A DNA stretch of 53,951 nt from Bacteroidota bacterium. Lineage in GTDB: Bacteria > Bacteroidota > Bacteroidia > 2-12-FULL-35-15. Positions 1,987 to 16,021 of this stretch are shown here, piece by piece. Within the stretch, counting starts at the first letter, position 1; each line of letters opens with the position of its first letter. The stretch covers positions 1-53,951 of the forward strand of contig JAHEYB010000020.1 in NCBI GenBank assembly GCA_023251805.1. Direction: 5' to 3'. The notes below the pieces were generated by a model that saw only the letters and a program-made list of their open reading frames with translations, was not told the origin of the DNA and did not search any database. A program made the position numbers and the translations under genes.

Positions 1987-2074
1987 GCCCAGGTGGTGGA
2001 ATTGGTAGACACGCAGGACTTAAAATCCTGTGTCCATTGCGGACGTATCGGTTCAAGTCCGATCCCGGGTACCA
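1987..2074 (+). tRNA. tRNA-Leu (anticodon UAA)
   Basis: A class II tRNA of 88 bases including encoded CCA. The acceptor is GCCCAGG with CCCGGGT (one A-C mismatch and one G-U pair). The D-arm contains AATTGGTAGAC. Anticodon loop CTTAAAA has TAA at 2021-2023, a long variable arm TGTCCATTGCGGACGT follows, and the T-loop is TTCAAGT. A possible weak promoter TACCATTG lies at 1966-1973. The 3' end is part of the large inverted repeat described next. Confidence 0.95.
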
Positions 2075-2347: not shown

Positions 2348-2794
2348 TCAAATCAAATAATCTGTTTTTTCATTGCTCAATAGATTCACAATATGTCTTA
2401 TCGATGATAGCGCGAGCGTATCTTTTATAATGTAAGTAAACGCACCGAATTTTAATGAATTGGTGGCTATCTGAAGATTTTCTTGTCCGGATAACATTAC
2501 CACATACGTTTCTGGTCTCAACTTCTTTATTTTTTTCAGGATATTTAAGCCATTTTTGGCATATTTTTTACCTGAGTTTAAAAAGTAATCCAAAATAATG
2601 ATGGAGGGGTTTAAATGTATATTCTCTAAACAATCTTCACCTGTTTGATAGCAATAGACTTTACACATCGTATCTTTTTTGAGATGGAAACCCAATGCAT
2701 ATAAATAGGACTGGTCATCATCCACGATAAAAACAGAAATCTCCTGCTCTTTTTTTATCTTATTCTCGGTTCTATTTTCATCGATGACTTCCAT
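2348..2794 (-). CDS. Receiver-only response regulator (no output domain, no membrane anchor)
   Basis: A 148-residue single REC domain. From the ATG at 2794 the acidic triad is DDD near residues 25-27, the phospho-acceptor is in IILDYFLN (about Asp69), the switch Ser is in MLSGQ and the Lys in YIIKD. It belongs to the same subfamily as the receivers at 4256 and 5304: it shares QTGEDCL, the DYxLN motif and a 5-7-residue insert before the ANG/KNG turn. Unlike those it stops just where their transmembrane tail begins, and its stop codon abuts the tRNA-Leu repeat array. Last gene of the Usp/receiver operon. Confidence 0.85.
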   Translation of the reverse strand: MEVIDENRTENKIKKEQEISVFIVDDDQSYLYALGFHLKKDTMCKVYCYQTGEDCLENIHLNPSIIILDYFLNSGKKYAKNGLNILKKIKKLRPETYVVMLSGQENLQIATNSLKFGAFTYIIKDTLALSSIRHIVNLLSNEKTDYLI

Positions 2795-2826
2795 TGCCAA
2801 TTGATTTTAAGAACTGTTTAAACTCT

Positions 2827-3741
2827 TTATTCAAATGGGGTACTGCCAGCACTTAAATCCAATGTTTCAAAATGCCAATTTCCTTCAATCGGTTTGATAC
2901 TCATAACAGGAATTCGAGAGTGGTTAATAATTTGTTTTGCAAAAGCTCCTAAAAACATGCCGGTAAGTTGTGATTCATGGTCGGTCATGATAATAATCAA
3001 ATCTCCTCTTACCTCATCAGCATATTGCATTGTTTCTACTGCCAGATTTTTTCCTTGGACAATTTTTTGGCTGTATTTGATTTTCGCTTTCTTTAACGCT
3101 TTTTCTACTGCTTCAATTTTAATCATGAACTTGTTTTTGTCCATCTCTTCATCTTCTTCCTCAATCAATCCCAAGATGTTTACAAAAGCGCCATAATGTG
3201 CAGCCATCTCAATGGCATAATCCACTTTTTGGCGGGAATGCAATGAATTATCGATTGGGAGAATAATGTTTTTAAATCCGATTCTTTCGGAAGAAGATTG
3301 AAAAGTAATAATTGGGCAAGGTGACACACTTGTTGCTTTATGGGCATTACTACCGATAAAATATTCTTCAAATCCTTTGGCACCGTGTGTTCCCATCACA
3401 ACCACATCAATATTATTCTCTCTCACAACTTCACAAATCTGCGACACCACTCTTCCTCTACTAATGATGCACGTTGGTTGAATGCCATACCGTGTTTTTA
3501 TTTTTTCAGCCTGCTCTTCCAAACTTCTACGGATATTTTTCTCCACTTCATCCGTATCAACTGCAACAAGCGCTTCGGGATCATAAACAGTATAAACAAA
3601 TTCTGTCAATTCAATTACATGGAGCAGATATAAATCTGCTTTAAACAAACTGGCCATGAAAGATCCCTGTTCAAATGCAAGTTGTCCTGTGTCGGAAAAA
3701 TCCATCGGTATGAGGATTTTTTTAATTTCTAGCCTTTTCAT
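2827..3741 (-). CDS. Universal stress protein, two tandem Usp domains
   Basis: A 304-residue cytoplasmic protein with Usp domains at about 5-150 and 155-290. The first keeps the nucleotide-binding pattern G-2x-G-9x-G-S (GTHGAKGFEEYFIGS). In the second (MTDHESQLTGMFLGA) it is degraded, so ATP binding is likely in the N-terminal half only. Tandem UspA proteins are common stress factors in Bacteroidota. It lies 20 bases after the receiver at 3762 and 32 before the next one (ATG 2794), so it is probably co-transcribed with receivers; its partner is unknown. Confidence 0.92.
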   Translation of the reverse strand: MKRLEIKKILIPMDFSDTGQLAFEQGSFMASLFKADLYLLHVIELTEFVYTVYDPEALVAVDTDEVEKNIRRSLEEQAEKIKTRYGIQPTCIISRGRVVSQICEVVRENNIDVVVMGTHGAKGFEEYFIGSNAHKATSVSPCPIITFQSSSERIGFKNIILPIDNSLHSRQKVDYAIEMAAHYGAFVNILGLIEEEDEEMDKNKFMIKIEAVEKALKKAKIKYSQKIVQGKNLAVETMQYADEVRGDLIIIMTDHESQLTGMFLGAFAKQIINHSRIPVMSIKPIEGNWHFETLDLSAGSTPFE

Positions 3742-3761
3742 TTTGTTTAGGTTTTAAGGGG

Positions 3762-4238
3762 TTATTGATACGCATATAAAATGACTATAAATAATGCTAT
3801 AAAAAAAATTAGGCAAAAAATAATATTGAGATGCGTCATTCCTTTTTGTTCGTTAGACGAAATTTTGTCTAAGAATGTATTGATAATCTTTTTTACTTGT
3901 TGTATGGAGTCGTCTTCTTTATAAAGATAATCATATGCACCTGCTTTAATTAATTCCTTTTCAACCGCTTCATCCTCATTTCTGGTTAAAAACACAACTG
4001 GAATTTTTGGATTGTATTTTTTTATTTGTTCAAAGGTTTCTTTTCCATTAATTCCAGGAAGCCAGTAATCCAATATAACTAACATTGGGTTTAATCCCAT
4101 GTGTTCTATGCATTCTTCACCTGACTTAAAACCAAGACATTGAACAATGCTATCGTTCGACAATTTATACTCTAACATCAAAGAGTACATTTCATTATCT
4201 TCAACAATAAAAACCAGTCTTTTTTGAATCGCATCCAT
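3762..4238 (-). CDS. Receiver domain with C-terminal transmembrane tail
   Basis: 158 residues. The REC domain occupies about 7-125: acidic E13-D14, phospho-Asp57 in VILDYWLPG, Thr in VVFLTRN, Lys107 in YLYKEDD. After a short charged linker (SSNEQKG) there is one hydrophobic helix at about 136-156 (IIFCLIFFIALFIVIL), ending AYQ. There is no effector domain. The layout is that of a tail-anchored protein with the receiver in the cytoplasm. It diverges from its neighbours by lacking the insert after the phospho-Asp. It sits 17 bases after the receiver at 4256. Confidence 0.88.
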   Translation of the reverse strand: MDAIQKRLVFIVEDNEMYSLMLEYKLSNDSIVQCLGFKSGEECIEHMGLNPMLVILDYWLPGINGKETFEQIKKYNPKIPVVFLTRNEDEAVEKELIKAGAYDYLYKEDDSIQQVKKIINTFLDKISSNEQKGMTHLNIIFCLIFFIALFIVILYAYQ

Positions 4239-4255
4239 ATGTTTGTTTTTGTGGT

Positions 4256-4762
4256 TTAAAGAAATAATTTATATACCATTACTAGGCCTACTCCAACAAC
4301 TAGAAACAAAATTGCACCGGTAAGCCATAATTTGTATTTTTTCAAGCGCTTAGAGGTTGTTATATTTTTTATAATATTTTTTAGTGTTGCATGAATTTTA
4401 AAAAAAACATTATCATTCTTTATCACATAATCATAGGCGCCTTCTCTAATACTTTCAAGAGCCACTTCTATTCTATTTTGACCAGAAATCATAATTACAG
4501 CCATTTCAGGATTGGTTTGTTTAATTTTACGAAGAACAGAGCGACCATCCATAGCGTGAGGATTAAATCCGTTTAATACATAATCAAGAATAACAACGTC
4601 TGGCTTTTTTTCAGTGATATTTTTCAAAAACTCCTCACCAGTTTGAAATAAATTAATTTGAACAGCGCTACTAATTTTTTGCTGTAAAAAATATTTCATC
4701 GACTTCAAAAATAGTTCGTCATCGTCTACGATGCAAATAGTTAGTGGCTCTGTATTTTTCAT
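4256..4762 (-). CDS. Receiver domain with C-terminal transmembrane tail
   Basis: 168 residues from the ATG at 4762 (an upstream TTG at 4792 would add ten residues). REC: D13-D15, phospho-Asp60 in VVILDYVLN, Ser in IMISGQ, Lys115 in DYVIKND. An insert GFNPHAMDG follows the phospho-Asp. A basic stretch (SKRLKKYK) precedes the helix at about 146-164 (LTGAILFLVVGVGLVMVY), which fits the positive-inside rule for a cytoplasmic receiver. No effector domain. It probably starts the operon 4256-3762-2827-2348. Confidence 0.88.
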   Translation of the reverse strand: MKNTEPLTICIVDDDELFLKSMKYFLQQKISSAVQINLFQTGEEFLKNITEKKPDVVILDYVLNGFNPHAMDGRSVLRKIKQTNPEMAVIMISGQNRIEVALESIREGAYDYVIKNDNVFFKIHATLKNIIKNITTSKRLKKYKLWLTGAILFLVVGVGLVMVYKLFL

Positions 4763-4935
4763 GGCGATTGATTTTAAATATTTTATTTTCAAAAATAAAG
4801 AGACGAATTTTAAGTGTTTTTGGTACTGGTATTTGTTTAAATATTACGAAAGAAACGATGAATTTTTGTTCATTTTCGTTGAACGTATTTAAATTGGAGG
4901 TGAGCGAATTAAATATATTGTTAAAAAATGAGACC

Positions 4936-5292
4936 TTATTTAGCATACTTTTTAACTTGCTGTAATAACTTTTTAAAATTGATTGGCTTGCTTACAAAAT
5001 CAACTGCCCCTAAGCCAATGGAATGCAAAACAACATCCGCCTTATCTAAAGAAGAAATAATGATTATGGGGATATTATTAAAATAGAATTGCTTCAACAA
5101 GCTCAGCAAACCCAAACCTGAAATATTGGGCATCATTACATCTGAAATAATTAAATCAACTTTTACTTTATTGATAATATCAAGTGCTTCATACCCATTT
5201 TCTGCTAAAACAGTATCATATCCCACTCCTTTTAAATTGTGTGAAATTGCTTCTAAAAGCATTTTATCGTCATCTACAATTAAAATTTTCAT
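4936..5292 (-). CDS. Receiver-only response regulator (CheY-like)
   Basis: A 118-residue minimal REC domain: D7-D9, phospho-Asp51 in LIISDVMMPNISG, Ser in IIIISSLDK, Lys102 in DFVSKPINF. It has the canonical MMP and KP motifs, unlike the DYxLN receivers around it, and no membrane segment. It lies 11 bases downstream of the tail-anchored receiver at 5304 and is probably its operon partner. It may shuttle phosphate or act by protein contact. Confidence 0.88.
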   Translation of the reverse strand: MKILIVDDDKMLLEAISHNLKGVGYDTVLAENGYEALDIINKVKVDLIISDVMMPNISGLGLLSLLKQFYFNNIPIIIISSLDKADVVLHSIGLGAVDFVSKPINFKKLLQQVKKYAK

Positions 5293-5303
5293 AAGCTCAG
5301 TTT

Positions 5304-5897
5304 TTAAATTCTTAACAATCCATATACAATAAATGCAATCACTGACGCCAGCACAACAAGCTCACAAATTATAAAAAACAAAGAAGTAACTTCTATATCT
5401 CCAACAATATTTGTGATAATATTATTAATTCGTAATAATGCTGTTTGAGTTTTTGAAATATAGTCGTACGCCCCATTATCCATACAATCAATAGCAATAT
5501 TGAGGCTATCTTGAGAAGACAGCATAATCACTTTGGTTTTAGGATTTAATTTTTTGATTTGCTTTAATATAGAAATACCGTTCATTGCATTAGCAATTTT
5601 AGAATTTAGATAATAATCTAAGATTACTACGGTAGGTTTTTTCTTCATCTGCTTCAAACAGTCTTCACCAGTTTGAAAAGAATGTATCTCCACTGAGTCA
5701 ATATTACTTGACAGGGAAAGCTGAAGAGCTTTCAAGTACAATATATCATCGTCAACAATAAACACATTCACTTTTTTATGTACTCGGGATTTTTTTCGCT
5801 TTTTACTTGGATAATTAAGCAAGTAGCTAATTAAACGTGGTGATAGGTGCATTGAGCCATCGTGATTACCAGGGGGTGTTTTAACTAAAGTTTCCAT
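5304..5897 (-). CDS. Receiver domain with N-terminal extension and C-terminal transmembrane tail
   Basis: 197 residues. A basic, probably disordered extension (1-42, SKKRKKSRVHKK) precedes the REC domain: D49-D51, phospho-Asp94 in VVILDYYLN, Ser in MLSSQD, Lys149 in DYISKTQ. An AMNG insert follows the phospho-Asp. A single hydrophobic helix at about 172-195 (FFIICELVVLASVIAFIVYG) ends the protein. Its promoter region (5898-5990) shares a spaced motif with those of the regulators at 12736 and 14543. First gene of a two-gene unit with 4936. Confidence 0.88.
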   Translation of the reverse strand: METLVKTPPGNHDGSMHLSPRLISYLLNYPSKKRKKSRVHKKVNVFIVDDDILYLKALQLSLSSNIDSVEIHSFQTGEDCLKQMKKKPTVVILDYYLNSKIANAMNGISILKQIKKLNPKTKVIMLSSQDSLNIAIDCMDNGAYDYISKTQTALLRINNIITNIVGDIEVTSLFFIICELVVLASVIAFIVYGLLRI

Positions 5898-5916
5898 GAG
5901 TCTATACTTTTTTTAT

Positions 5917-5990
5917 AGTATACGTAGCCAGAATAGGAAACTAATCGATTTTCGTTAAAATGGAGAAAGTGATAGGTAAACGAACAGAAA
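5917..5990 (-). promoter_or_regulatory. Shared receiver-gene promoter element, copy B
   Basis: In gene orientation: direct repeats TTTCTGTTCG and TTTCTCCATT begin 22 bases apart (5990 and 5968). TTAACGAA follows (complement of 5951-5958), then CGTATACT (complement of 5917-5924), starting 34 bases after TTAACGAA. The start codon at 5897 follows at once. The 34-base spacing is the same upstream of the gene at 12736. Confidence 0.6.
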
Positions 5991-6013
5991 TCGCAGTAAA
6001 CAAAAAAATGAAT

Positions 6014-6373
6014 TTAGATAAACAACTTTTTCTCAATTTCTAGCTGTTCTATAGCTACTTCACACACACTTTTTATCTTTGATACCATTTCAGGCAATTG
6101 CTCCATATTTGTTCTTTTTAGACAATTTTCTTCAATCGAAATAATCACGGGCTCTAGCTCTTTTATCCCCATAAAAGCAAAAGAAGCTTTGATTTTGTGT
6201 GACACAGCATGTAATCCTGTCCAGTCTTTTGAATTTAAACATCTTTCCATGGTATCCAAAGCTTCTGGTGTTTGAACCATAAATACAGATATCATTTGGG
6301 AAATAAATTCATTGCTTCCGTTTGATAAATCTTTTAAATAAGTAAGATCTATGTATTTTTTGATAGTTTTCAT
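6014..6373 (-). CDS. Histidine phosphotransfer (HPt) protein
   Basis: A 119-residue stand-alone HPt domain. The phospho-accepting His59 sits in AVSHKIKASFAFMG, matching the HPt consensus (aH.lKg.s...G). It carries phosphate between the hybrid kinase receiver and other receivers. It is 17 bases downstream of the hybrid kinase at 6391, which indicates one transcript. As the only HPt seen among about ten receiver domains, it is a candidate hub for this island. Confidence 0.92.
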   Translation of the reverse strand: MKTIKKYIDLTYLKDLSNGSNEFISQMISVFMVQTPEALDTMERCLNSKDWTGLHAVSHKIKASFAFMGIKELEPVIISIEENCLKRTNMEQLPEMVSKIKSVCEVAIEQLEIEKKLFI

Positions 6374-6390
6374 TTGTAGAAGTATTAAAA

Positions 6391-8826
6391 TTATTTTTCA
6401 GAAAAATTATTTTTTTGTAAAACAGAAATTATTTTTGAGTGTAACACTTTAGTGTCAAAGGGTTTTGATATATAATCGTTCATTCCAGCTTTGATACATT
6501 TTTGTGCCTCTCCCGACATGGCGTGTGCTGTCATTGCAATAATTGGTACTTGACATCCCGATTCTTTCGACATCCTCCTTATGGCCCGTGTTGTTTCATA
6601 TCCATCCATTTCAGGCATTTGAATATCCATTAAAATTACATCGAACCTACCATTTCCAATTTTTTCTAATGCAATGAGCCCATTTTCAGCAACCTCTACT
6701 TCCCAATTCCAATCTGTCAAAACTTTTTTTGCTAAAATTTGATTTAAAAGATTATCCTCAACAAGTAGAATTTTTAGTCCTGAAAAATTTTCCACCATTC
6801 TGTTTTCTTCAACGATGTCCATTTTGTCCAATGAACTTGGCATATTCTTTTTAAATTTCAGATTAAACGTAAAAACAGAGCCAATTCCCAATTCACTTTG
6901 AACTGCAATGCTTCCACCTTGTAATTCTATTAATTGTTTTACAATGGTCAAACCTAAGCCTGTCCCGCCATATTTTCTGGTTGTTTCATTACTAGCTTGA
7001 GTAAATCCATTAAATATCGAAGTCTGCTTATCAATTGATATTCCAATACCGGAATCTTTGACAGAAAACTGAATATCATACTCAGTATCAGATTCCGATA
7101 TTAAATCTACTTCTATTCGTATTTCTCCTTTTTCAGTAAATTTTATTGCATTACCAAACAAATTGAGTAATATCTGATTCAATCTAATTGGATCGCCAAT
7201 CAGTACCGAAGGAATACGCTTATCTATTTTTGTAATCAGTTCAAGATTTTTTTCGACCAGCTTTTGAAGCATCAATTCTGAAAGTGTTGATATTAATTGA
7301 GGCAAACTCAATTCAATTTGCTCGAAGGCAAACTTCCCAGACTGAATTTTTGAAAAGTCAAGAATATCATTAATAATAACAAGTAAATTTTCTCCTGATG
7401 TTTTTACTGCGTCAATGTATTGTTTTTGCTCTTGATTCAGTTCAGTTTTTAAAATCAAATTTGTAAATCCTACGATTGCATTCATTGGGGTCCTAATTTC
7501 ATGACTCATATTCGCTAAAAACTGCTCTTTCACTTTCATGGAATCTTCCAGTTCTTGTTTTGCCTTAATCAATTGATTTAAGGCCTTATTTCCTTTCATT
7601 AACGAATGTTCAGCAATCTTATTTGCACTCAAAAGTTCCTGCTCTATTTGTTTTCGAACCGTAATATCCGAATCGATAGCAATAATTCTCTCCACCTCAC
7701 CTGTCTTTCCAAGAATTGGAGTTAAAGTAGTAATTACCCAATACTCGTTTCCATCCTTTGAAAAATTTTTACTTTCATAAGTAACCGGTTTTTTATCTAT
7801 AATAATCGATTCGTATGAACTATTTTGTTTTGAAAGACCTGTATTATAACCTTGTCTCAATAACTCCCCATGTGTATTTAAAACTTCATCGAGTTTATAT
7901 CCGGTTAACTTTGTAAACCCTTCATTTACCCATTCTATCCTTCCTTTACCATCAGCAATAATTACCGAATTGTAGGATTGAGTAGCAGCCAAAACGAGTT
8001 TCTCCATTTCTTCTTCATGCAATCGGTCTGTCACATCTTGATCAGTACCAACCATTTTCACTGCCAACCCCAATTCACTTCCCATCACTTCTCCTCTAGC
8101 ATGCAATGTTTTTACAACTCCGTTGTTAAGAATAATTCTATAATAAAAATTAAATGGCTGACACTTTTTTATTGATTCTTTGATTATTTCTTTTGTATAA
8201 AACCAGTCACTAGGATGAATCATTTCATGGATTCTTTTAATTGAAATGGCATCTCCTTGAGGATCCATGCCATGAATTCGATACAATTCATCCGACCAGG
8301 TAATTGTATTATCCGCAATATCCCATTCCCAACTTCCAATGTGCGCAAGCTTTTGTGCGTCTGCAAGCTTCAAGCGTTCATTGAGCAAATCGAGTGATTT
8401 TTCTTCTAGCTTTTTTTTGTTTTCGGAAAGCTTCTTTAAAAGTTTATAACGCTCAATACTATAATTAATTGAACGTGTCAACTCTTTTCCATTAACTTTT
8501 CCTTTAATTAAAAAATCTTGCGCACCCAACTTCATTGCATTCAGTCCTGTGGATTCATCTTCATATCCAGTGAGAACAATGATGGGAGTTTCAGGAGAGT
8601 ATTCGTACACCTTTTTAAATGTATCTAAACCTTTACTATCAGGCAATGAAAGATCCAAAATAATAATATTGAATATATTATTTTCCAAAAGCTCAAGGGC
8701 TTTTGATAGAAGAGCAGTTGTTGAAAGAGAAAACATTGTATTAAATGAGCCTTTCAAATAAACATCCAACAATCGTGCATCACCAGGATTGTCTTCAACG
8801 AGCAATATATTTATTTTCTCTTCCAT
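6391..8826 (-). CDS. Hybrid sensor histidine kinase: REC-PAS-PAS-HisKA-HATPase-REC
   Basis: 811 residues, no transmembrane segment. The N-terminal REC (about 5-125) has phospho-Asp58 in IIILDLSLPDSKG. A coiled coil, then PAS at about 160-275 (IGSWEWDIADNTITWSDEL) and PAS at about 285-400 follow. HisKA has His442 in ANMSHEIRTPMNA. The HATPase has intact N (NAIKFT), G1 (DSGIGI) and G2 (GGTGLGL) boxes. The C-terminal REC has Asp734 in VILMDIQMPEMDG. The architecture fits a cytoplasmic phosphorelay kinase whose N-terminal receiver takes input from another kinase. It is followed directly by the HPt gene. Confidence 0.95.
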   Translation of the reverse strand: MEEKINILLVEDNPGDARLLDVYLKGSFNTMFSLSTTALLSKALELLENNIFNIIILDLSLPDSKGLDTFKKVYEYSPETPIIVLTGYEDESTGLNAMKLGAQDFLIKGKVNGKELTRSINYSIERYKLLKKLSENKKKLEEKSLDLLNERLKLADAQKLAHIGSWEWDIADNTITWSDELYRIHGMDPQGDAISIKRIHEMIHPSDWFYTKEIIKESIKKCQPFNFYYRIILNNGVVKTLHARGEVMGSELGLAVKMVGTDQDVTDRLHEEEMEKLVLAATQSYNSVIIADGKGRIEWVNEGFTKLTGYKLDEVLNTHGELLRQGYNTGLSKQNSSYESIIIDKKPVTYESKNFSKDGNEYWVITTLTPILGKTGEVERIIAIDSDITVRKQIEQELLSANKIAEHSLMKGNKALNQLIKAKQELEDSMKVKEQFLANMSHEIRTPMNAIVGFTNLILKTELNQEQKQYIDAVKTSGENLLVIINDILDFSKIQSGKFAFEQIELSLPQLISTLSELMLQKLVEKNLELITKIDKRIPSVLIGDPIRLNQILLNLFGNAIKFTEKGEIRIEVDLISESDTEYDIQFSVKDSGIGISIDKQTSIFNGFTQASNETTRKYGGTGLGLTIVKQLIELQGGSIAVQSELGIGSVFTFNLKFKKNMPSSLDKMDIVEENRMVENFSGLKILLVEDNLLNQILAKKVLTDWNWEVEVAENGLIALEKIGNGRFDVILMDIQMPEMDGYETTRAIRRMSKESGCQVPIIAMTAHAMSGEAQKCIKAGMNDYISKPFDTKVLHSKIISVLQKNNFSEK

Positions 8827-8850
8827 AAAGAAAAATTTATTTTATCCAGT

Positions 8851-10824
8851 TTATTTACCATACTTTTTTATTGTAAAGTAAAAAGTATTTCCTTTTTCCT
8901 TTTCTGATTCAACCCAAATTTTTCCACCATGTCTTTCTACTATTTTTTTGCAGATTGCCAATCCAATTCCCGTTCCAGGATACCTCTCTATTGTATGAAG
9001 TCGCTGCAAAATAACAAATATTTTTTCCGAATATTCTTTTGGAATATCTATGCAATTATCTTTAACAGAAAACAAATATTCCTTATTATTTGATTTACAA
9101 GAAATTACTATTTCAGGATTTTCTACACTTTTATATTTTATTGCATTTTCAATAAGGTTTTGAAACAATTGACCAATCAAAACGCTATCACCATAAATGT
9201 TTGGCATTTTTTCAAATTTAACAACAGCATCACTCCTGCTTATTTTATCGTTTAGGTTTTGTAATACATCTGCTAAAAGAGTATTCATATTGATATGTTC
9301 AAATGGTTTCGCCCTGTTAACTCTTGAATATTCAAGTAAACTATGAATCAGATTCCTCATCCGTGCGGCTCCGTCAATGGCATAATTTATAAAATCTTTC
9401 GCGTCTTCATCTAATTTATCTTTGTAGCGATCCTCTAACAATTGTACATAACTTGTAATCATTCGTAAAGGTTCTTGAAGATCATGTGAAGCGACATATG
9501 CGAATTGCTCTAACTCAGCATTTGAGCGAATTAACTCTTGTGTTTTTTGTTTTAATTCCTCTTCAGCATTTTTACGATAAGTGATATCTCGAATAACTGA
9601 AAGAAATTGCGTACGCCCATCTACATTAATTTTTCTTATAGAATATTCAATGTGCAATTTTTGCCCATCTTTACGTACAACAATTGTTTCTCCGGTATCG
9701 CCTATTTCATCACCGGAAATACGTTGTTTCAAGCGCTCTGAAAGCTTCTCTTTTTCCTCGGGAACAACAATGTCCATAAAAGATGGCAAATTCATAATCT
9801 CATTTTTATTGTAACCATATAAGGAGCATAGTGCATCATTGGCATACAGAATCGACTCACCTTCTGTAATAGCAATTCCCTGTCCCATCTCTCCTTGTGT
9901 TTCAATTAGTGTTTCATACAAGTCTTTTTGCTTTCGTAAACTTTGTTCACTACGAATACGCTGATTTGTGTTCTGCTCTAATTCTGAAACCATCTTATTA
10001 AAAGAGAAGGCTAACGTTCCTATTTCATCTTTAGAATACATTTTTGCTTTGTCATCAAATTTTCCTTTTGATACACTTTCAGAAACTCTAATTATTTCTC
10101 CTATTCCTCGTGTTATTCCAAAACTTACCGAAATAGTAAGAAGAAGTCCCGTTAATTCAACCGTTAAAGCAATTGCAAACAAAATTGTTAAAATCAAATT
10201 CTCTAACCATCTAGAACCTTCTCCCAAAGTGTAAGAAAAATCATCTTCTAGAGTCGTAAGCTTTTCATTGATTTTATCCATTTCGGATAGTATCACATCA
10301 ATCTTCTCAGTAGAAGGCGATTCTATATTAATTTCAGTATGCAATCGTTCACCAATAGGAATTAGTTTTGCAATTGTAGAATCCGCTTCACCCCAAACTT
10401 CAATAGCTTTATTGATATAATAGATGTTGTGAAATCGTTGAAATAACTTAATCATTCCGTCTATATCATTGGGATGATTTCTTCCCTCTATAAAACCTTG
10501 TCTAGCTGCTTTCAAATCTGAATTTTTCTTATTTAGCTCAACCAACGTTTTGTGATCTCCTAATGGCACTTTCATGAAATTCCGGAACTGTGTATAATCT
10601 CTTTCACTGAACGTTCTAGCATATTTTTGTAAATGATAAACAGCGTCCTTTTGTGCTTTCGACCACAATCCTTCACCACCAACAAATGCCCTAACAGAAG
10701 AGAGTGTATTTAAAGAAAACCACAACATAAATAGTTCAACGGCTATTAAGAGTGCCATAATGCCTACCACAAAGTATAATTTCTTGGAGATAGATATATT
10801 CTTAAGCCATTTAAGAATTTTCAT
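8851..10824 (-). CDS. Membrane sensor histidine kinase with HAMP and PAS; degraded G1 box
   Basis: 657 residues. TM1 at about 16-38, a helical periplasmic sensor to about 205, TM2 at about 208-232, HAMP to about 285, PAS at about 305-425. HisKA has His447 in YVASHDLQEPLRM. The HATPase keeps the N box (NLIENAIKYK) and G2 (PGTGIGLAI), but the G1 box reads D589-N-C-I-D-I instead of DNGIGI, so both glycines are lost (Cys591, Asp593). Its kinase core is a close paralogue of the next gene (10847), where the box is intact. Kinase activity may be reduced; phosphatase or scaffold roles are possible. Confidence 0.93.
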   Translation of the reverse strand: MKILKWLKNISISKKLYFVVGIMALLIAVELFMLWFSLNTLSSVRAFVGGEGLWSKAQKDAVYHLQKYARTFSERDYTQFRNFMKVPLGDHKTLVELNKKNSDLKAARQGFIEGRNHPNDIDGMIKLFQRFHNIYYINKAIEVWGEADSTIAKLIPIGERLHTEINIESPSTEKIDVILSEMDKINEKLTTLEDDFSYTLGEGSRWLENLILTILFAIALTVELTGLLLTISVSFGITRGIGEIIRVSESVSKGKFDDKAKMYSKDEIGTLAFSFNKMVSELEQNTNQRIRSEQSLRKQKDLYETLIETQGEMGQGIAITEGESILYANDALCSLYGYNKNEIMNLPSFMDIVVPEEKEKLSERLKQRISGDEIGDTGETIVVRKDGQKLHIEYSIRKINVDGRTQFLSVIRDITYRKNAEEELKQKTQELIRSNAELEQFAYVASHDLQEPLRMITSYVQLLEDRYKDKLDEDAKDFINYAIDGAARMRNLIHSLLEYSRVNRAKPFEHINMNTLLADVLQNLNDKISRSDAVVKFEKMPNIYGDSVLIGQLFQNLIENAIKYKSVENPEIVISCKSNNKEYLFSVKDNCIDIPKEYSEKIFVILQRLHTIERYPGTGIGLAICKKIVERHGGKIWVESEKEKGNTFYFTIKKYGK

Positions 10825-10846
10825 ACATTATTTTTTAATTATTTTG

Positions 10847-12271
10847 TTATTTTTCTTTTATAGTAAAACAAAATGTACTGCCTTCATTTATCTCAGACTC
10901 CACCCAAATCATGCCGCTATGTCTTTCTACAATTTTTTTACAAATTGCTAACCCGATACCTGTCCCGGGATATTTATCTTTACTGTGCAAGCGTTGAAAT
11001 ATGACAAAAATTTTATTCGCGTATTCCTTTTTTATTCCTATTCCATTATCTTTTACCTTAAAAAAGTATTCATTGTTTCCTTTTTCACATGAAATAATTA
11101 TTTCTGGTGCTTGGGTTGATTTAAATTTTATGGCATTTGAAATTAAATTTTGAAAAAGCTGATTAATGAGTACCGGATCCCCATAAATATTGGGAAGTTC
11201 GTTCACTTGAATTACAGCAGCATTCTGATTTATTTGGTCTCGTAAATTTTGCAAAACATCTTTCAATAATTCACTTGTATTAATATGCTCAAATGGCTTT
11301 ATTCTGTTTACCCTTGAATATTCCAAAAGACTATTAATCAATATTCTCATTCTATTGCTTCCATCTACTGCATAATTGATAAACTCATTCGCATCTTCGT
11401 CCAACTTATCTTTATATCGTTTTTCGAGTAATTGTACATAACTTGTTATCATTCGAAGTGGTTCTTGCAAATCGTGAGAAGCCACATAAGCAAATTGTTC
11501 CAACTCAGCATTTGAACGGATTAGCTCTTCTCCTTTTTCCTGCAATTTCAATTCTGCCATTTTGCGATCTGTAATGTCTCTTGTGATTTTTGAAAAACCG
11601 TGAATTTTTCCTTCATCATCATAAATTGCGGTAAAAGTGACATCTGCCCAAAATTTTATTCCATTTTTCCCTACTCTCCAAGCTTCACACTTGTATCTTC
11701 CCAGCTCTTTTGCTTTTTTCAAATTATATTGAGGTTCTTTTCTTTTTATTTCTTCAGGAGTGTAAAATATAGAAATGTGTTTCCCTATAATTTCTTTTTC
11801 TGTATAGCCTTTGATGTGTTCTGCTCCCTTATTCCAACTTACAACAACACCTTTTTTGTCAATCATGCAAATGGCATATTCTTTCACATTCTCAACTAAT
11901 AAACGAAAGTGCTCTTCACTTTCTCTTATTTGTCTCAATCGATACTCCAGTTCTTCCACTAAAGCATTAATACCTGCGGCAAAAGCATCCAAATCATCTC
12001 CTTTTTCACTTATCAAGGCCTTTTCCGAAAAATTCATAGAAGTATATTTTAATAATACTTCCAAGTGCTCCGACATTCTCTTTTTGTCATTTATTCGTTC
12101 TTCATTTTTTGCATTCAATTCCTCGCCAAGAAAATTTAGCCCAGCTATAATAGAATCCAATTCATCTCCTTTTCCTGAAACAATCCCTTTTGTTTCAAAA
12201 TCCAACTTAGAGAACTGGATAATCTGATCAAATACAGCTTCAATTCTATCATTTTGAGTTATATCCGGCAT
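10847..12271 (-). CDS. Soluble PAS histidine kinase with two HAMP-like repeats
   Basis: 474 residues, no membrane segment. The N-terminus holds two related segments (about 18-52 and 74-110), each of the form LDF/MNF...SGKGDELD...G(L/I)N.L.EEL. They resemble the HAMP-like repeats found in soluble Bacteroidota kinases. A PAS domain spans about 120-240, HisKA has His266 in VASHDLQEP, and the HATPase has intact G1 (DNGIGI) and G2 (PGTGIGLAI). It lies 22 bases upstream of its paralogue at 8851 and 19 after the DUF7793-like gene. Confidence 0.93.
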   Translation of the reverse strand: MPDITQNDRIEAVFDQIIQFSKLDFETKGIVSGKGDELDSIIAGLNFLGEELNAKNEERINDKKRMSEHLEVLLKYTSMNFSEKALISEKGDDLDAFAAGINALVEELEYRLRQIRESEEHFRLLVENVKEYAICMIDKKGVVVSWNKGAEHIKGYTEKEIIGKHISIFYTPEEIKRKEPQYNLKKAKELGRYKCEAWRVGKNGIKFWADVTFTAIYDDEGKIHGFSKITRDITDRKMAELKLQEKGEELIRSNAELEQFAYVASHDLQEPLRMITSYVQLLEKRYKDKLDEDANEFINYAVDGSNRMRILINSLLEYSRVNRIKPFEHINTSELLKDVLQNLRDQINQNAAVIQVNELPNIYGDPVLINQLFQNLISNAIKFKSTQAPEIIISCEKGNNEYFFKVKDNGIGIKKEYANKIFVIFQRLHSKDKYPGTGIGLAICKKIVERHSGMIWVESEINEGSTFCFTIKEK

Positions 12272-12290
12272 AGGCTTTTTATAAAATTTA

Positions 12291-12686
12291 TTATAAATAT
12301 TGTCTCAACCATTCTTTTGCTTCCTTTTCGTCATTGAACATTTTTGTAGGATAAGGTTGAGGCTTCATCGCAAAAAATAAATTTGCCAGCATTCTTCCCA
12401 AAGAAGAGTCCGAAATCATCGCAATTGCTTTTACAAATTTTGGAAATTCAACCGCGGCATACTCCCTTACTTCTCTAGTTGTTACGGTTGAATAAGTAAC
12501 ATCTATGAGCATGCACACCTTTTCTTGTTTTATTACTTTTTTTAAGTCGGCCAAACTTTTTTTTACTTCTTCTAAGGATTGAGGGGGCGCTTTTTTAGAA
12601 ACAGAATATAGAATTCCATCTTTATCAAACCAAAAAGTGGATGTGGAAGTATAATATAGCTTTGTATTTGAAGGAGGCTTCATCAT
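12291..12686 (-). CDS. STAS/SpoIIAA-like protein (DUF7793-type)
   Basis: A 131-residue soluble protein. The pattern is beta strand-rich: FWFDKDGILYSV, then KVCMLIDVTY, EVREYAA, VKAIAMISDSSLGRMLANLFF, and the end KMFNDEKEAKEWLRQYL. This matches the small alpha/beta STAS-like proteins (DUF7793) that sit beside histidine kinases in Bacteroidota. Such proteins may modulate kinases, but no biochemical role is established. It is co-directional, 49 bases after the Rcp1-like receiver. Confidence 0.6.
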   Translation of the reverse strand: MMKPPSNTKLYYTSTSTFWFDKDGILYSVSKKAPPQSLEEVKKSLADLKKVIKQEKVCMLIDVTYSTVTTREVREYAAVEFPKFVKAIAMISDSSLGRMLANLFFAMKPQPYPTKMFNDEKEAKEWLRQYL

Positions 12687-12735
12687 GAATTGTTAAGATT
12701 TAAATTCGAAAATGAATTTGATGTTTTATTAAAAT

Positions 12736-13182
12736 TTACTTTGTTGGAAGTTTTACAATTGTTAACCAAAAATTTTCAATAGAACGTATGACATTAATAA
12801 ATTGACTAAAATCAACGGGTTTTGTAATATAACAATTGGCATGATGTGCATACATATTTAAAACATCCTGCTCAGCCGAAGAGGTTGTAAGCACAATCAC
12901 AGGAATCATCATTAATTCAGGGTCCGACTTAATCTCAGCCAGCACTTCCCGTCCATCTTTTTTAGGGAGATTTAAATCAAGGAGAATAATATCCGGAATA
13001 ACAACGTTTGCAAATTTGTCCATTTTCCTTAAATAGAGAAGAGCTTCTTCACCATCCATCACTACACTCAAATTGTTCTTAATTTTACCTTCTTTAAGGA
13101 CTTCTTTGGTAAGCCTAATATCACCAGGGTTGTCTTCCACAAGTAATATGTTTATGGCGTGAAAATTTTCTTTATTACTCAT
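12736..13182 (-). CDS. Rcp1-type receiver-only response regulator
   Basis: 148 residues from the ATG at 13182, chosen because AAAGGAG (complement of about 13190-13196) is well placed; a frame 19 codons longer is open upstream. REC motifs: LLVEDNPGDIRLT, phospho-Asp in DIILLDLNLPKKDG, Thr in VLTTSS, Lys in YITKPVD. The EDNPGDxRL and DLNLPxxDG forms are those of Rcp1/phytochrome-partner receivers paired with PAS kinases. A promoter element shared with 5304 lies upstream (13222-13274). Confidence 0.92.
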   Translation of the reverse strand: MSNKENFHAINILLVEDNPGDIRLTKEVLKEGKIKNNLSVVMDGEEALLYLRKMDKFANVVIPDIILLDLNLPKKDGREVLAEIKSDPELMMIPVIVLTTSSAEQDVLNMYAHHANCYITKPVDFSQFINVIRSIENFWLTIVKLPTK

Positions 13183-13221
13183 AGGGCTCTCCTTTCTATA
13201 AATTAGTCTATTCTTTTGACT

Positions 13222-13274
13222 AGTATACGACTCCAGCAAGAAATTTTAAACTAAATTCGTTAAGCTGGGAAAAA
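13222..13274 (-). promoter_or_regulatory. Shared receiver-gene promoter element, copy A
   Basis: In gene orientation: TTTCCC (from 13272), TTAACGAA (complement of 13256-13263), then CGTATACT (complement of 13222-13229) starting 34 bases after TTAACGAA. This is exactly the spacing seen in copy B. Conservation continues past the core: CTGG before, and A(G/A)TAGACT about 15-25 bases after CGTATACT. Confidence 0.6.
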
Positions 13275-13313
13275 TCGAGGATGAACGCAATAAAACAAAA
13301 GTGAGTTTTTGGT

Positions 13314-14006
13314 CTAAAGTAAATTTAGTCTTTTCACTAAATTTTCTTTATAAACATATCCAACTGGAATCAGCTGCTTTTCAATGACTATAGTATTGTC
13401 ATCTATTGAATTAATGTAATCAACAGAAACAATAAATGAACGGTGTACGCGGACAAATTTATCAGCTGAAAGTTTATTTTCTAGTGATTTCATGGTAGAA
13501 TGAACCGTGTATTTTTTTTCGGAAGTATGTATAGAAATATAATCGCCAAGCGCTTCTATCCACAATATTTCTTTGGTATTAATTTTAATGAGGGTACCAT
13601 TAATTTTTACGAAGAGGAAATCCTGGCTTAAGAAAACACTGCCTTTTTTATTGGAATCGAATATCTCTTTGGACTTCGAAATTGCTTTGAAAAAACGATT
13701 CAGCGCTATAGGTTTTACAATATAATCTATTACGCTGCATTCGAATGCTTCAAGCGCATATTCTTTTTTGGAACTTGCCAGAATGGTTAATGGGGGCTTT
13801 TGTAGGCTTTTGATAAATTCTAAACCCGTAATATCAGGCATTTCAATATCCAAAAGCATTAAATCTACAGCATCTCTGTTCAAAACAGTTAGTGCTTCGG
13901 TAGCACTTGCATAAGTACCAATAAGATTTAAGTATGGAACCTGAGAAACTAAATGCTTGAGAGCATTTCTTGACATTTCGTCATCGTCTACAATAATGCA
14001 ATTCAT
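13314..14006 (-). CDS. LytTR-family response regulator
   Basis: 230 residues from ATG 14006, with GGAGG (complement of 14013-14017) six bases upstream. REC about 1-120: VDDDEMS, phospho-Asp in LMLLDIEMPDITG, Ser in LASSKK, Lys in DYIVKPI. LytTR DNA-binding domain about 130-230: FVKINGTLIKI, ILWIEALGDYISIHT, the core KFVRVHRSFIVSVDYINSI, and IPVGYVYK. LytTR proteins bind paired direct repeats about 21-22 bases apart; such pairs are present in the adjacent intergenic region. No LytS-type kinase is next to it, so its kinase may be one of this island. Confidence 0.95.
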   Translation of the reverse strand: MNCIIVDDDEMSRNALKHLVSQVPYLNLIGTYASATEALTVLNRDAVDLMLLDIEMPDITGLEFIKSLQKPPLTILASSKKEYALEAFECSVIDYIVKPIALNRFFKAISKSKEIFDSNKKGSVFLSQDFLFVKINGTLIKINTKEILWIEALGDYISIHTSEKKYTVHSTMKSLENKLSADKFVRVHRSFIVSVDYINSIDDNTIVIEKQLIPVGYVYKENLVKRLNLL

Positions 14007-14009
14007 CAA

Positions 14010-14542
14010 TTACCTCCATCTTTAAGTAAAACCACCAAGTTTTAGTCAATGAAATGAAAAAGCAAGAAATTGAGTAATCCTATATCATAACCTATTATAC
14101 TCTAGATTATATAAAAATGTTCCAGCTAGTTCAAATAATTATAAACATTTTTTAAAATTACAACCATTTCATAAATTAGTAAAAAAATAAATTAATTTAT
14201 CCTTACATCTGTAATAATACAAGCAACATTATGAACGACATGATACTAGATGATAATAAAATGGCAAAGGTTTAGTTAATCCCATCGACAGTATCGAGAA
14301 AAACAATGCATATATTGGCAAACATCCAATTCCTATTGGCGAACAACACAAAAAAAGTTATTAGAAAAAAAAATCTAGCCTAACCAAATTGCCAAAATAT
14401 TGGATTATCTAAAAATTCACATACCTATTTCCCTTTTCTGGCTATCCAATTTCCCTTTTTAACGAATACCTAAAACAATACGCAATAAGCCTCCGTAAAT
14501 TTGGTTAACTATTCAGTTATTCATTAAAAAAAGGAGGGCCAA
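14010..14542. promoter_or_regulatory. Intergenic regulatory region between LytTR and tail-anchored receiver genes
   Basis: 533 bases, very AT-rich, no credible gene. It holds two direct-repeat pairs with helical-turn spacing: ATTGGC(A/G)AAC at 14314-14323 and 14335-14344 (21 apart; CCAAT at 14326-14330 also faces ATTGG at 14335-14339), and ATTTCCCTTTT at 14427-14437 and 14449-14459 (22 apart). The second copy runs into TTAACGAA. These are candidate LytTR or other activator sites for the gene at 14543. Confidence 0.5.
14449..14501 (+). promoter_or_regulatory. Shared receiver-gene promoter element, copy D
   Basis: TTTCCC, then TTAACGAA at 14459-14466, then CGTAAATT at 14494-14501 (6 of 8 bases match CGTATACT), 35 bases after the start of TTAACGAA. 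It resembles copies A and B upstream of minus-strand receiver genes. AAGGAGGG (14531-14538) then gives a strong ribosome-binding site for the ATG at 14543. Confidence 0.5.
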
Positions 14543-15031
14543 ATGGAAGCACAAGGATTAAATCTATTTATTGTTGATGATAATACATCGATGGTAACAG
14601 GACTTAAGCATTATATCCAAAGTAGATTTGGAAAAGGTGTAAATGTATCAACCTTTAATAGTGGAGAGGATTGTTTAGAAAAGGTTGACAAAAATACACA
14701 CATTGTTATTTTGGATTATTTTATGGATGGAAAAAATGGATTGGAGACACTTAAAGAAATCAAGGAAATCAATCCCAAAACAGAAGTAATTATGCTATCG
14801 AGCAATGAGGATATTGGTTTAAGGATTGAATCCTTTAAAGTTGGTGCAAGAGATTACGTCATAAAAGGGCCGACATCCTGGAAAAAATTAACCATGTTGG
14901 TAAACCACATAATTACTACACCTATCAGAATTATCGTGAGAGAGTTTGGAGTGTCTAAATTCGTAGCTATTTTTCTAATGACGTTTATTACAATGGGATT
15001 AGTTGTTGCTTTGGTTTTGTCTTTTATTTAG
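14543..15031 (+). CDS. Receiver domain with C-terminal transmembrane tail
   Basis: 162 residues. REC about 5-125: FIVDDN, phospho-Asp in HIVILDYFMDGKNG, Ser-Ser in IMLSSNE, Lys in DYVIKGP. The subfamily signature SGEDCL and NPKTEVIMLSS is shared with the receivers at 4256 and 5304. A linker with IRIIVREFGVSK leads to one hydrophobic helix at about 140-161 (VAIFLMTFITMGLVVALVLSFI), ending the protein. No effector domain. It is divergent from the main island but carries a related promoter. Confidence 0.88.
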   Translation: MEAQGLNLFIVDDNTSMVTGLKHYIQSRFGKGVNVSTFNSGEDCLEKVDKNTHIVILDYFMDGKNGLETLKEIKEINPKTEVIMLSSNEDIGLRIESFKVGARDYVIKGPTSWKKLTMLVNHIITTPIRIIVREFGVSKFVAIFLMTFITMGLVVALVLSFI

Positions 15032-15097: not shown

Positions 15098-15679
15098 ATG
15101 AAAAAGCTCATCATCATTTCACTTCTTTTTCTGGCTAGTGCTAGAATAGAAATGACTGCTCAAGAAGAAGCAGCAAGAGAAAAATTCGGAAACTCATTAA
15201 ACCTTGGAGCTGGCATTGGATATTATGGTGCAATTGGAAGAGCGCTTCCTGTTGGCATTGTGAATTATGAATTTGATGTGGCAAAAAATTTTACACTGGC
15301 TCCTTTTGCAGGAATTTATTCTTACAGAAACTCTTATTATTGGGGATATCCAAATAAGCCATACGATGATCCCTCGTATCACTATTATACATACAAGGCA
15401 ACTGAGGTTCCTGTTGGCGTAAAAGGAACTTACTATTTTGATCAGTTGCTTCGTGCTAATCCGAAATGGGACTTTTATGTTGCCAGTTCAGCAGGATATG
15501 TATTTAGAAGTGTAGTTTGGGACTCAGGGTATTATGGTGATAAATATATTTATCGCGATTCAAGCCCAATCTATTTGGATGCACACATTGGAAGTGAATA
15601 CCACTTTAATCAAAAAACAGGAATATTTCTTGATTTGTCAACCGGGGTTTCAACATTTGGGTTTGCATTGCATTTTTAA
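15098..15679 (+). CDS. Small outer-membrane beta-barrel-like secreted protein
   Basis: 193 residues. The signal peptide is MKKLIIISLLFLASARIEMTAQ. The mature part has alternating aromatic strands and Gly/Tyr-rich turns (GAGIGYYGAIGR, YSYRNSYYWGYP, GSEYHFNQKTGIFLDLS) and ends with aromatic FGFALHF, typical of small Bacteroidota barrels. No specific family is recognised. It is 66 bases after the receiver gene, perhaps in the same transcript. Confidence 0.7.
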   Translation: MKKLIIISLLFLASARIEMTAQEEAAREKFGNSLNLGAGIGYYGAIGRALPVGIVNYEFDVAKNFTLAPFAGIYSYRNSYYWGYPNKPYDDPSYHYYTYKATEVPVGVKGTYYFDQLLRANPKWDFYVASSAGYVFRSVVWDSGYYGDKYIYRDSSPIYLDAHIGSEYHFNQKTGIFLDLSTGVSTFGFALHF

Positions 15680-15847: not shown

Positions 15848-16021
15848 CCAATTTAAATGGACAAGAAGAGGGGGCGACCGCAATTTAGGCTCTTTTTAGA
15901 GAAAAACTAACTGATTGAAAATCAAATAGACCTTACTAAAAGGGGAAGTTTGAATCAAATTAAAAAAAAAGAAAAGTGTATCTTTTTTGCTTTTATTAAT
16001 TTCCAATGTTATATTTACATA

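What the first reader, a model, noticed from the sequence alone, without database searches (positions are those of the whole stretch)
2348..15031. A family of tail-anchored receiver proteins: REC domain plus one C-terminal membrane helix
Seen: four proteins (3762-4238, 4256-4762, 5304-5897 on minus; 14543-15031 on plus) each consist of one complete REC domain (acidic pair, phospho-Asp, Ser/Thr, Lys) followed by a linker and a single hydrophobic helix of about 20 residues at the very C-terminus. None has an effector domain. Three share GE(D/E)xL, NPxxxVIM(L/I)S and, in two, an AM(N/D)G insert after ILDYxLN. They sit among an HPt protein, a REC-PAS-PAS-HisKA-HATPase-REC hybrid kinase, two more kinases, two anchor-free receivers, a STAS-like protein, a two-domain Usp and a LytTR regulator. 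Known: receiver-only proteins act as phosphate shuttles or by contact. Inference: placing phospho-acceptors at the inner membrane could localise a phosphorelay, sequester phosphate, or gate a membrane partner. I know of no described system of this form.
Basis: partly seen in the sequence, partly recalled or inferred. Interest (0 to 1): 0.87.

Follow-up and report, generated by a model that had tools for sequence, protein, structure and literature searches.

The report
Membrane-tail receiver proteins of Bacteroidota
Some Bacteroidota bacteria make small signal-receiving proteins that should be pinned to the inner membrane by a helix at their tail end, encoded beside the kinases and phosphate carrier that probably switch them, which points to a barely explored way of sending a signal from inside the cell to its membrane.

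Summary
Four proteins each consist of one intact receiver (REC) domain and one very hydrophobic C-terminal helix. They are not a local oddity. Among listed proteins (queries included) the tail is kept by 120 of 120 for D, 101 of 120 for A and 30 of 98 for B, with no intermediate scores; C keeps it in 6 of 6 same-genus copies. All 78 tailed rows of a 160-row tree fall in one receiver subfamily, which also holds untailed members.

The genes form a 13-gene minus-strand array: LytTR regulator, receivers, three kinases, HPt, tailed receivers, Usp. Another species of the genus (G003) keeps the order except the last receiver. Five of six C copies lie within 6 kb of an HPt, 0.045 expected.

Best reading: single-domain response regulators of a hybrid-kinase/HPt phosphorelay, tail-anchored so that phosphorylation acts at the inner membrane by contact. 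D's tail is conserved in sequence and suggests a specific membrane partner; A, B and C tails drift and look like plain anchors. Membrane insertion, phosphotransfer and partner are inferred. My nine paper searches found no description of a tail-anchored receiver. New variant of a known kind.

The parts
3762..4238 (-). Tail-anchored receiver A, 158 aa: REC 9-110, membrane helix about 139-157
   Evidence: one search lists 120 proteins, 101 with tail; syntenic copy of 160 aa in G003
4256..4762 (-). Tail-anchored receiver B, 168 aa (start ATG 4762 fits relatives; the longest ORF starts at 4792), with AMDG insert; membrane helix about 145-163
   Evidence: AlphaFold2 model pLDDT 89.6 with one helix 119-167 from alpha5 into the membrane segment
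5304..5897 (-). Tail-anchored receiver C, 197 aa, N-terminal extension about 40 aa, AMNG insert, membrane helix about 173-191
   Evidence: 6 of 36 same-genus genomes at E <= 1e-88 (this one included), all 6 with tail
14543..15031 (+). Tail-anchored receiver D, 162 aa, with conserved linker and membrane helix (PIRxxVREFGVSKFxAIFLxTFxTMGxVV)
   Evidence: 43 loci in titled genome records, 43 of 43 with tail; AlphaFold2 model pLDDT 83.9
6014..6373 (-). Free-standing HPt phosphotransfer protein, 119 aa; the only HPt match in this genome (80% complete)
   Evidence: Pfam Hpt 35.8 bits; genome search
6391..8826 (-). Hybrid kinase, 811 aa: REC-PAS-PAS-HisKA-HATPase-REC
   Evidence: Pfam
8851..10824 (-). 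HAMP-PAS-HisKA-HATPase histidine kinase, 657 aa
   Evidence: Pfam
10847..12271 (-). PAS-HisKA-HATPase histidine kinase, 474 aa
   Evidence: Pfam
12291..12686 (-). DUF7793 / SpoIIAA-like (STAS-like) protein, 131 aa
   Evidence: Pfam
12736..13239 (-). Anchor-free receiver-only protein, 167 aa; outside the tailed subfamily
   Evidence: Pfam; tree
13314..14009 (-). REC-LytTR DNA-binding response regulator, 231 aa; the only non-kinase receiver protein of the array with a recognised output domain
   Evidence: Pfam
4936..5292 (-). Anchor-free receiver-only protein, 118 aa; outside the tailed subfamily; a receiver of 118-121 aa directly follows C in G003, G006, G009 and G017 as well
2348..2800 (-). 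Anchor-free receiver-only protein, 150 aa, inside the tailed subfamily; no counterpart at this place in G003
2827..3741 (-). Two-domain universal stress protein, 304 aa; also at the end of the cluster in G003 and G006
   Evidence: Pfam

Best explanation
These are single-domain response regulators tethered to the inner membrane by a C-terminal tail anchor. They are outputs of one phosphorelay: sensor kinase or kinases, then the C-terminal REC of the 811-aa hybrid kinase, then the HPt protein, then several receivers. Of these the LytTR protein carries the signal to DNA and the tailed receivers carry it to the membrane. When phosphorylated they act by contact, through the alpha4-beta5-alpha5 face that runs into the tail helix, on a membrane protein or on each other. 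D most likely has a specific partner in the membrane, because its linker and tail are conserved in sequence. A, B and C most likely use the tail as a plain anchor and also compete with the LytTR regulator for phosphate from the HPt. Shown: sequences, domain make-up, predicted helices, conservation of tail and of gene order. Inferred: membrane insertion, phosphotransfer, contact output, partner.
For: REC with all active-site residues in all four. In the 62-row D alignment the phospho-Asp and Lys are invariant, Asp is 61 of 62 at each acidic-pair position, and the Ser/Thr position is 54 Ser plus 8 Thr. Tail kept in 120 of 120, 101 of 120 and 30 of 98 listed proteins for D, A and B (7 of B's 30 have D-like tails) and in 6 of 6 copies of C. 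D copies in 43 of 43 titled-record loci keep the tail. G003 keeps 12 of the 13 genes of the array in order, and G006, G009 and G017 keep hybrid kinase, HPt, C and small REC, with Usp at the end in G006. C within 6 kb of an HPt match, free or fused, in 5 of 6 (expected 0.045), D in 4 of 20 (expected 0.15, Poisson P 1.8e-5). LytTR, kinase and HPt all within 5 kb of D in 6 of 43 titled loci; a kinase in 23 and an HPt label in 21 of 43. In 12 loci where the B-type profile rings on an untailed 144-146 aa receiver (L206-L212, L214, L215, L217-L219), that receiver follows a hybrid kinase labelled as carrying an HPt. AlphaFold2 puts alpha5 of B and the membrane segment in one helix, residues 119-167. 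D tail entropy is 1.33-1.49 times that of REC, against 1.85-1.92 for A and 2.19 for B.
Against: No experiment, no localisation data and no dedicated topology predictor. Untailed members are nested in the same subfamily, so the tail is not essential to the receiver's relay role. 68 of B's 98 listed proteins and 19 of A's 120 have no tail. 16 of 43 D loci show no kinase, HPt, LytTR or AraC gene within 5 kb, and 9 of 43 show none of these nor a stress gene (some loci are cut short by contig ends). No membrane protein is a constant neighbour of D. Helical periodicity of conservation in the D tail is not significant (p 0.06 at 100 degrees), so a conserved helix-helix face is not shown. D is patchy: 12 of 36 genomes of the genus. 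Many HPt labels rest on phmmer only; Pfam's Hpt did not match the one hybrid of the AraC context that I scanned (L035), and only 9 loci have a protein of the free-standing HPt cluster within 4.5 kb.
Confidence: 0.6

Rival explanations
1. Membrane-held phosphate sinks: the tailed receivers have no partner of their own. They sit near the membrane kinase and drain phosphate from the HPt or from the hybrid kinase, setting threshold and decay of the LytTR output.
For: Many receivers to one HPt in this genome (26 REC matches; one HPt match); no effector domain; tails of A, B and C drift in sequence as an unspecific anchor would.
Against: Does not explain sequence conservation of D's linker and tail, nor D copies beside stress genes with no kinase within 5 kb (8 of 43).
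Confidence: 0.25
2. Kinase adaptors: the tail pairs with the membrane helices of the neighbouring sensor kinase (CHASE3 or HAMP type), and the receiver sets kinase or phosphatase activity of that one kinase, in the way that DivK acts on its kinases (recalled).
For: A kinase lies within 5 kb of D in 23 of 43 titled loci. In L027 the order is LytTR, D, CHASE3-HisKA-HATPase-REC, HPt.
Against: 20 of 43 loci have no kinase within 5 kb. In the window D diverges from the array and its downstream neighbour is a protein of no Pfam family, barrel-like to my eye.
Confidence: 0.2
3. The C-terminal helices are not membrane anchors but buried hydrophobic helices, for instance a helical hairpin or coiled-coil dimer.
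For: Only scale-based prediction is available; C copies in G006 and G009 score weaker (-0.4).
Against: Insertion-scale sums of -2.2 to -5.4 in the window. In the listed tailed relatives of D and B the segment ends within 14 residues of the C-terminus; some A-like copies have longer ends (L191, L195). Modelled as a helix beyond the REC fold. A clean gap separates tailed from untailed scores.
Confidence: 0.04

Closest known systems
Single-domain response regulators (CheY, Spo0F, DivK class; recalled, class described in PMC12471899, passages seen)
   Same: One REC domain, no output domain, expected to act by phosphotransfer or protein contact.
   Different: The proteins here carry a C-terminal membrane helix; the passage that I read describes the class as containing only a REC domain.
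EpsW of Myxococcus xanthus (PMC12802240, abstract and outline seen)
   Same: A receiver-only protein that, when phosphorylated, is proposed to act by direct contact on EpsZ, an initiating phosphoglycosyl transferase.
   Different: No tail anchor is mentioned in the abstract; protein A scores 34.2 bits against the EpsW model's cut-off of 200. I did not search the D neighbourhoods for a phosphoglycosyl transferase.
Hybrid-kinase/HPt phosphorelays (Rcs, Arc, Spo0 type; recalled)
   Same: Hybrid kinase with C-terminal REC, separate HPt, several receivers.
   Different: Several tail-anchored receivers in the output layer next to one LytTR transcription regulator.
PorX of the type IX secretion system (PDB 7pva and others)
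   Same: Its REC domain is among the closest solved folds to D (27% identity over 124 columns); also from Bacteroidota.
   Different: PorX chains are about 490-515 residues long, so they go on well beyond REC; D ends in a membrane helix. D scores 57.0 bits on the PorX model against a cut-off of 300.

Membership tests
Single-domain response regulator | complete REC domain with acidic pair, phospho-Asp, Ser/Thr and Lys | tested here: met
Single-domain response regulator | no effector domain | tested here: met
   Pfam gives no other family above cut-off; the NCBIfam rows shown (best 25 per protein) are all below their cut-offs
Single-domain response regulator | REC only, no further segment | tested here: not met
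   C-terminal hydrophobic helix in all four; hence 'tailed variant of', not plain member
Tail-anchored membrane protein | a single membrane helix close to the C-terminus | tested here: met
   scale-based only
Tail-anchored membrane protein | post-translational insertion with the N-terminal domain in the cytosol | not testable with these tools
   cytosolic REC follows from its need for a cytosolic phosphodonor (inference)
Hybrid-kinase/HPt phosphorelay | hybrid kinase, HPt and receivers encoded together | tested here: met
Hybrid-kinase/HPt phosphorelay | phosphotransfer HPt to receiver | not testable with these tools
   needs purified proteins
EpsW (NF041866) | score above the curated cut-off of 200 bits | tested here: not met
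   34.2 bits for protein A; not among the 25 shown rows for B, C and D
PorX (NF052313) | score above the curated cut-off of 300 bits | tested here: not met
   46.6, 40.8 and 57.0 bits for A, B and D; not among the 25 shown rows for C

The most novel reading that the evidence does not exclude
Bacteroidota have a separate output class of two-component signalling: receivers whose alpha5 helix runs into a tail anchor, so that phosphorylation in the cytoplasm moves or pairs helices inside the membrane, a two-component signal read out from inside to membrane. In the D type the conserved tail is the effector itself and docks on a dedicated membrane protein of the envelope or general stress response.
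Probability: 0.3. Interest if true: 0.8.

Novelty: new variant of a known kind. Interest (0 to 1): 0.63.

Why it matters
Response regulators are usually treated as soluble switches, with the kinase as the membrane part (general knowledge). A receiver subfamily that keeps a membrane tail in many Bacteroidota, beside an HPt and hybrid kinases, would add membrane-localised output to phosphorelays and would explain what some receivers without any effector domain do. It makes a direct test possible: cut the tail, keep the receiver. The D tail motif also gives a handle for finding the membrane partner, and a named strain, Flavobacterium humi DS2-A, carries a D-type relative with tail (L068, 48% identity).

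Tried and rejected
1. A conserved helix-helix face in the D tail: periodicity not significant (residues 140-159: p 0.06 at 100 degrees, p 0.16 for the best of 85-120 degrees). Dropped as evidence.

2. One constant membrane partner gene next to D: none found; neighbours fall into at least three contexts.

3. That the tail is a single old trait of the whole subfamily: the tree needs 15 changes, of which starred branches force only 4. 15 is an overcount, because at least two 'untailed' rows are loci cut inside a tailed gene (L188 first row, L161 last row). The tree has 120 columns for 160 rows, was built with a short search, and its rows were mostly found with tailed queries or lie beside them. 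98 of 258 rows were dropped as near-copies before the tree, after identical receiver domains had been left out.

4. Fold search: the 50 shown of 561 and of 598 matches at E <= 0.001 are receiver domains or proteins that contain one. RssB aligns with B over 155 columns, so part of the long helix is matched there, but no match shown is a membrane tail. In the PDB sequence search the 60 shown of 242 cover profile positions up to 131 of 163.

5. Phylum-wide search with the B-type alignment (316 of 395 genomes at E <= 1e-15) is not specific: it also rings on longer regulators of about 450-590 aa. I used it only for the 30 loci it fetched.

6. Paper searches: searches returned nothing. Searches returned papers (14, 13, 8 of 9, 8 of 9, 8 and 20 of 89 listed); none shows a tail-anchored receiver in title or start of abstract. 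Passages were read in PMC5847659, PMC10924467, PMC1183210 (that census left response regulators out) and PMC12471899. PMC12802240: abstract and outline only. The library states that most subscription-journal papers are missing, and no supplements could be read.
Full report
WHAT IS THERE. The window is contig C66 of a 2.98-Mb, 80-contig genome assembly (80% complete) with 26 receiver-domain matches, 11 of them in the window. Source names and record titles of its relatives place it in Bacteroidota (inference). Four proteins, A (3762-4238, minus), B (4256-4762, minus), C (5304-5897, minus) and D (14543-15031, plus), each hold one Response_reg domain at 66.8-74.7 bits (cut-off 30.2) and nothing else above cut-off. 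Each ends in a hydrophobic helix: best 19-residue Kyte-Doolittle mean 3.02, 2.54, 2.97 and 2.75; sum on the biological insertion scale -5.4, -2.2, -2.6 and -3.5. The three anchor-free receivers, the LytTR protein and the HPt reach at most 1.51 and never fall below +6.7. No other receiver-bearing frame that I recovered from the 26 matches of this genome has such a tail.

THE ARRAY. From the LytTR regulator (start 14009) to the receiver at 2348, thirteen genes run on the minus strand with gaps of 11-26 bases at eight joints and 49, 74, 116 and 173 bases at the other four (read, with B starting at ATG 4762). D lies divergently, 533 bases upstream of the LytTR gene. Order: REC-LytTR, REC, DUF7793/SpoIIAA-like, kinase, kinase, hybrid kinase (REC-PAS-PAS-HisKA-HATPase-REC), HPt, C, REC, B, A, Usp, REC.

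RELATIVES KEEP THE TAIL. Counts are of listed proteins, the window's own included. D: 617 proteins at E <= 0.001, best 120 listed; 120 of 120 have the tail. A: 165 found, best 120 listed, 101 tailed; of the 19 untailed, 4 are at most 112 residues long. B: 98 found and listed, 30 tailed, of which 7 have D-like tails; the 68 others are mostly more distant, many of them 144-residue proteins, several named as Flavobacterium. None of these 338 has a tail score between 1.5 and 8. Candidates down to 0.55 of the query length were eligible, so untailed relatives could have been found. A scan of genome records gave 78 loci; 43 (L027-L069) encode D-type proteins and 43 of 43 are tailed, two of them seen only in part (L063, L069). 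Two of these loci (L036, L044) carry a Saccharibacteria label; that is most likely a binning error. D-type tails were found in 12 of 36 genomes of the window's order, which are all of its genus (7 of 26 at >= 90% completeness and <= 5% contamination), and in 22 of 395 genomes drawn from the class (11 of 338; 10 of 196 genera), two of the 22 only weakly (E 4e-5 and 1e-4). C: 6 of 36 genomes of the genus at E <= 1e-88, the next match being 1e-51, 6 of 6 tailed. Tailed receivers of other types were seen in L051, in L190, L191, L194, L195, L200-L202 and L205 and, outside the class, in L213 and L216 next to a kinase.

ONE SUBFAMILY. In a tree of 160 receiver domains (78 tailed, 82 untailed) all 78 tailed rows lie in one branch of 129 rows (SH-aLRT 99), which also holds 51 untailed rows. 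The anchor-free receivers at 12736 and at 4936 (as L156) lie outside; the one at 2348 lies inside. Tails were therefore probably gained or lost more than once. Limits of this tree are given in Tried and rejected.

TWO KINDS OF TAIL. In D the stretch before the membrane, and the helix itself, are conserved in sequence: juxtamembrane residues 127-139 have mean entropy 0.92, REC 0.97, tail 1.39 in 62 rows; residues 109-126 are looser at 1.65. Over the 120 listed proteins the ratio of tail to REC entropy is 1.33 for D (1.49 in a 45-row set with distant members added); it is 1.92 for A (101 rows; 1.85 for the nearest 42) and 2.19 for B (12 rows). Between the window and G003, proteins A, B and C are 50, 57 and 56% identical and their last 45 columns 46, 49 and 42%. 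Helical periodicity in D's tail is not significant.

STRUCTURE. AlphaFold2 gives B a REC fold whose alpha5 continues as one helix 119-167 (mean pLDDT 89.6), and D a REC fold with helices 112-135 and 139-161 (83.9; mean pLDDT 60 for residues 131-140). The solved structures shown are receiver domains or proteins that contain one. These are single-chain models without a membrane.

GENE CONTEXT. G003 repeats 12 of the 13 genes in the window's order, with tailed receivers of 201, 170 and 160 residues at the places of C, B and A, and Usp at the end; the receiver at 2348 has no counterpart there. A 257-residue REC-bearing frame and a 167-residue frame stand where part of the hybrid kinase is expected, so that gene may be broken or misread there. 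G006, G009 and G017 keep hybrid kinase, HPt, C and the small REC. In G009 the HPt is found by Pfam but was hidden by an overlapping longer frame in my gene caller. In G008 the C gene and a hybrid kinase with HPt lie on different contigs. In G017 a D-type gene, a REC, a Usp and a LytTR regulator stand in the same cluster. The window's HPt is the only HPt match in its genome. C lies within 6 kb of an HPt match in 5 of 6 cases (expected 0.045); D in 4 of 20, free or fused HPt (expected 0.15, Poisson P 1.8e-5; this ignores kinship and contig ends). In the 43 titled D loci, within 5 kb: a kinase in 23, an HPt label in 21, an AraC-type regulator in 14, a LytTR regulator in 7, all of LytTR, kinase and HPt in 6, and one of Dps, CsbD, AI-2E, YtxH or YceI in 15. 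With the free-standing HPt cluster alone, 9 loci have one within 4.5 kb. 16 of 43 show no kinase, HPt, LytTR or AraC. No matched background was run for the 43 loci; the only chance estimate is the one for the genus. By equal contig lengths, at least 5 of the 11 nearest listed relatives of B (P0122, P0124, P0129, P0130, P0131 out of P0122-P0132) share a contig with an A-type protein (inferred from lengths, not from the contigs).

HOW IT MOST LIKELY WORKS. Shown: intact receivers, tails, conserved company. Inferred from established phosphorelay chemistry: hybrid-kinase REC to HPt to several receivers. Inferred from anatomy: alpha5, part of the face that changes on phosphorylation in known receivers (recalled), leads into the membrane helix, without a break in the model of B and with one short break in that of D, so a phosphorylation-driven change or dimer would act at the membrane. 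For D the conserved tail argues for a specific membrane partner; for A, B and C a plain anchor suffices and competition for HPt phosphate is as likely. EpsW of Myxococcus is a precedent for a receiver-only protein acting by contact on a phosphoglycosyl transferase (PMC12802240, abstract).

NOVELTY. Pfam shows no model beyond the receiver family above cut-off, and no NCBIfam row shown (best 25 per protein) for A, B, C or D reaches its cut-off. Nine paper searches found no description of a tail-anchored receiver. The library lacks most subscription journals, so this is absence in what I could search. I file it as a new variant of single-domain response regulators, not as a new category, because receiver, relay and tail anchor are each known.

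Noticed in passing
15950-16411 (+): A SiaC-family regulatory phosphoprotein (Pfam SiaC, 101.9 bits) lies two genes beyond D; a SiaC relative also lies near D in L054.
   Followed up: partly
15098-15679 (+); L061:9361-9927: A 193-aa protein of no Pfam family, barrel-like to my eye, directly follows D; relatives lie within 5 kb of D in 7 of 43 titled loci.
   Followed up: partly
L052, L061, L066, L068, L069: D-type genes sit among general-stress type genes (Dps, CsbD, YtxH, YceI, AI-2E, a holin-like protein), in L052, L061, L066 and L068 with no kinase within 5 kb.
   Followed up: partly
L051:6067-10495: Cluster of hybrid kinase, HPt, tailed receiver, REC-SpoIIE phosphatase and D-type receiver: a link between tailed receivers and a SpoIIE-type phosphatase.
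   Followed up: partly
L053:9475-9888 and L060:9135-9551: Short D paralogues (137-138 aa) directly before D end in KPFRITVKGFFR-like stretches with no membrane helix; possibly amphipathic anchors.
   Followed up: no
P0167-P0204; loci L206-L219: Untailed relatives of about 144 residues, several named as Flavobacterium, many ending in FIKRLLSIF-like stretches; similar 144-146 aa receivers follow a hybrid kinase labelled as carrying an HPt in 12 loci.
   Followed up: partly
L036, L044 (CAJCJB01 contigs): Contigs labelled Candidatus Saccharibacteria carry D-type genes typical of Bacteroidota; probably binning contamination.
   Followed up: no
1838-1913 and 1987-2074 (+): tRNA-Gly(gcc) and tRNA-Leu(taa) lie at the end of the array; the 128-aa minus-strand ORF at 1965-2351 overlaps the tRNA-Leu and is probably not a gene.
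   Followed up: no
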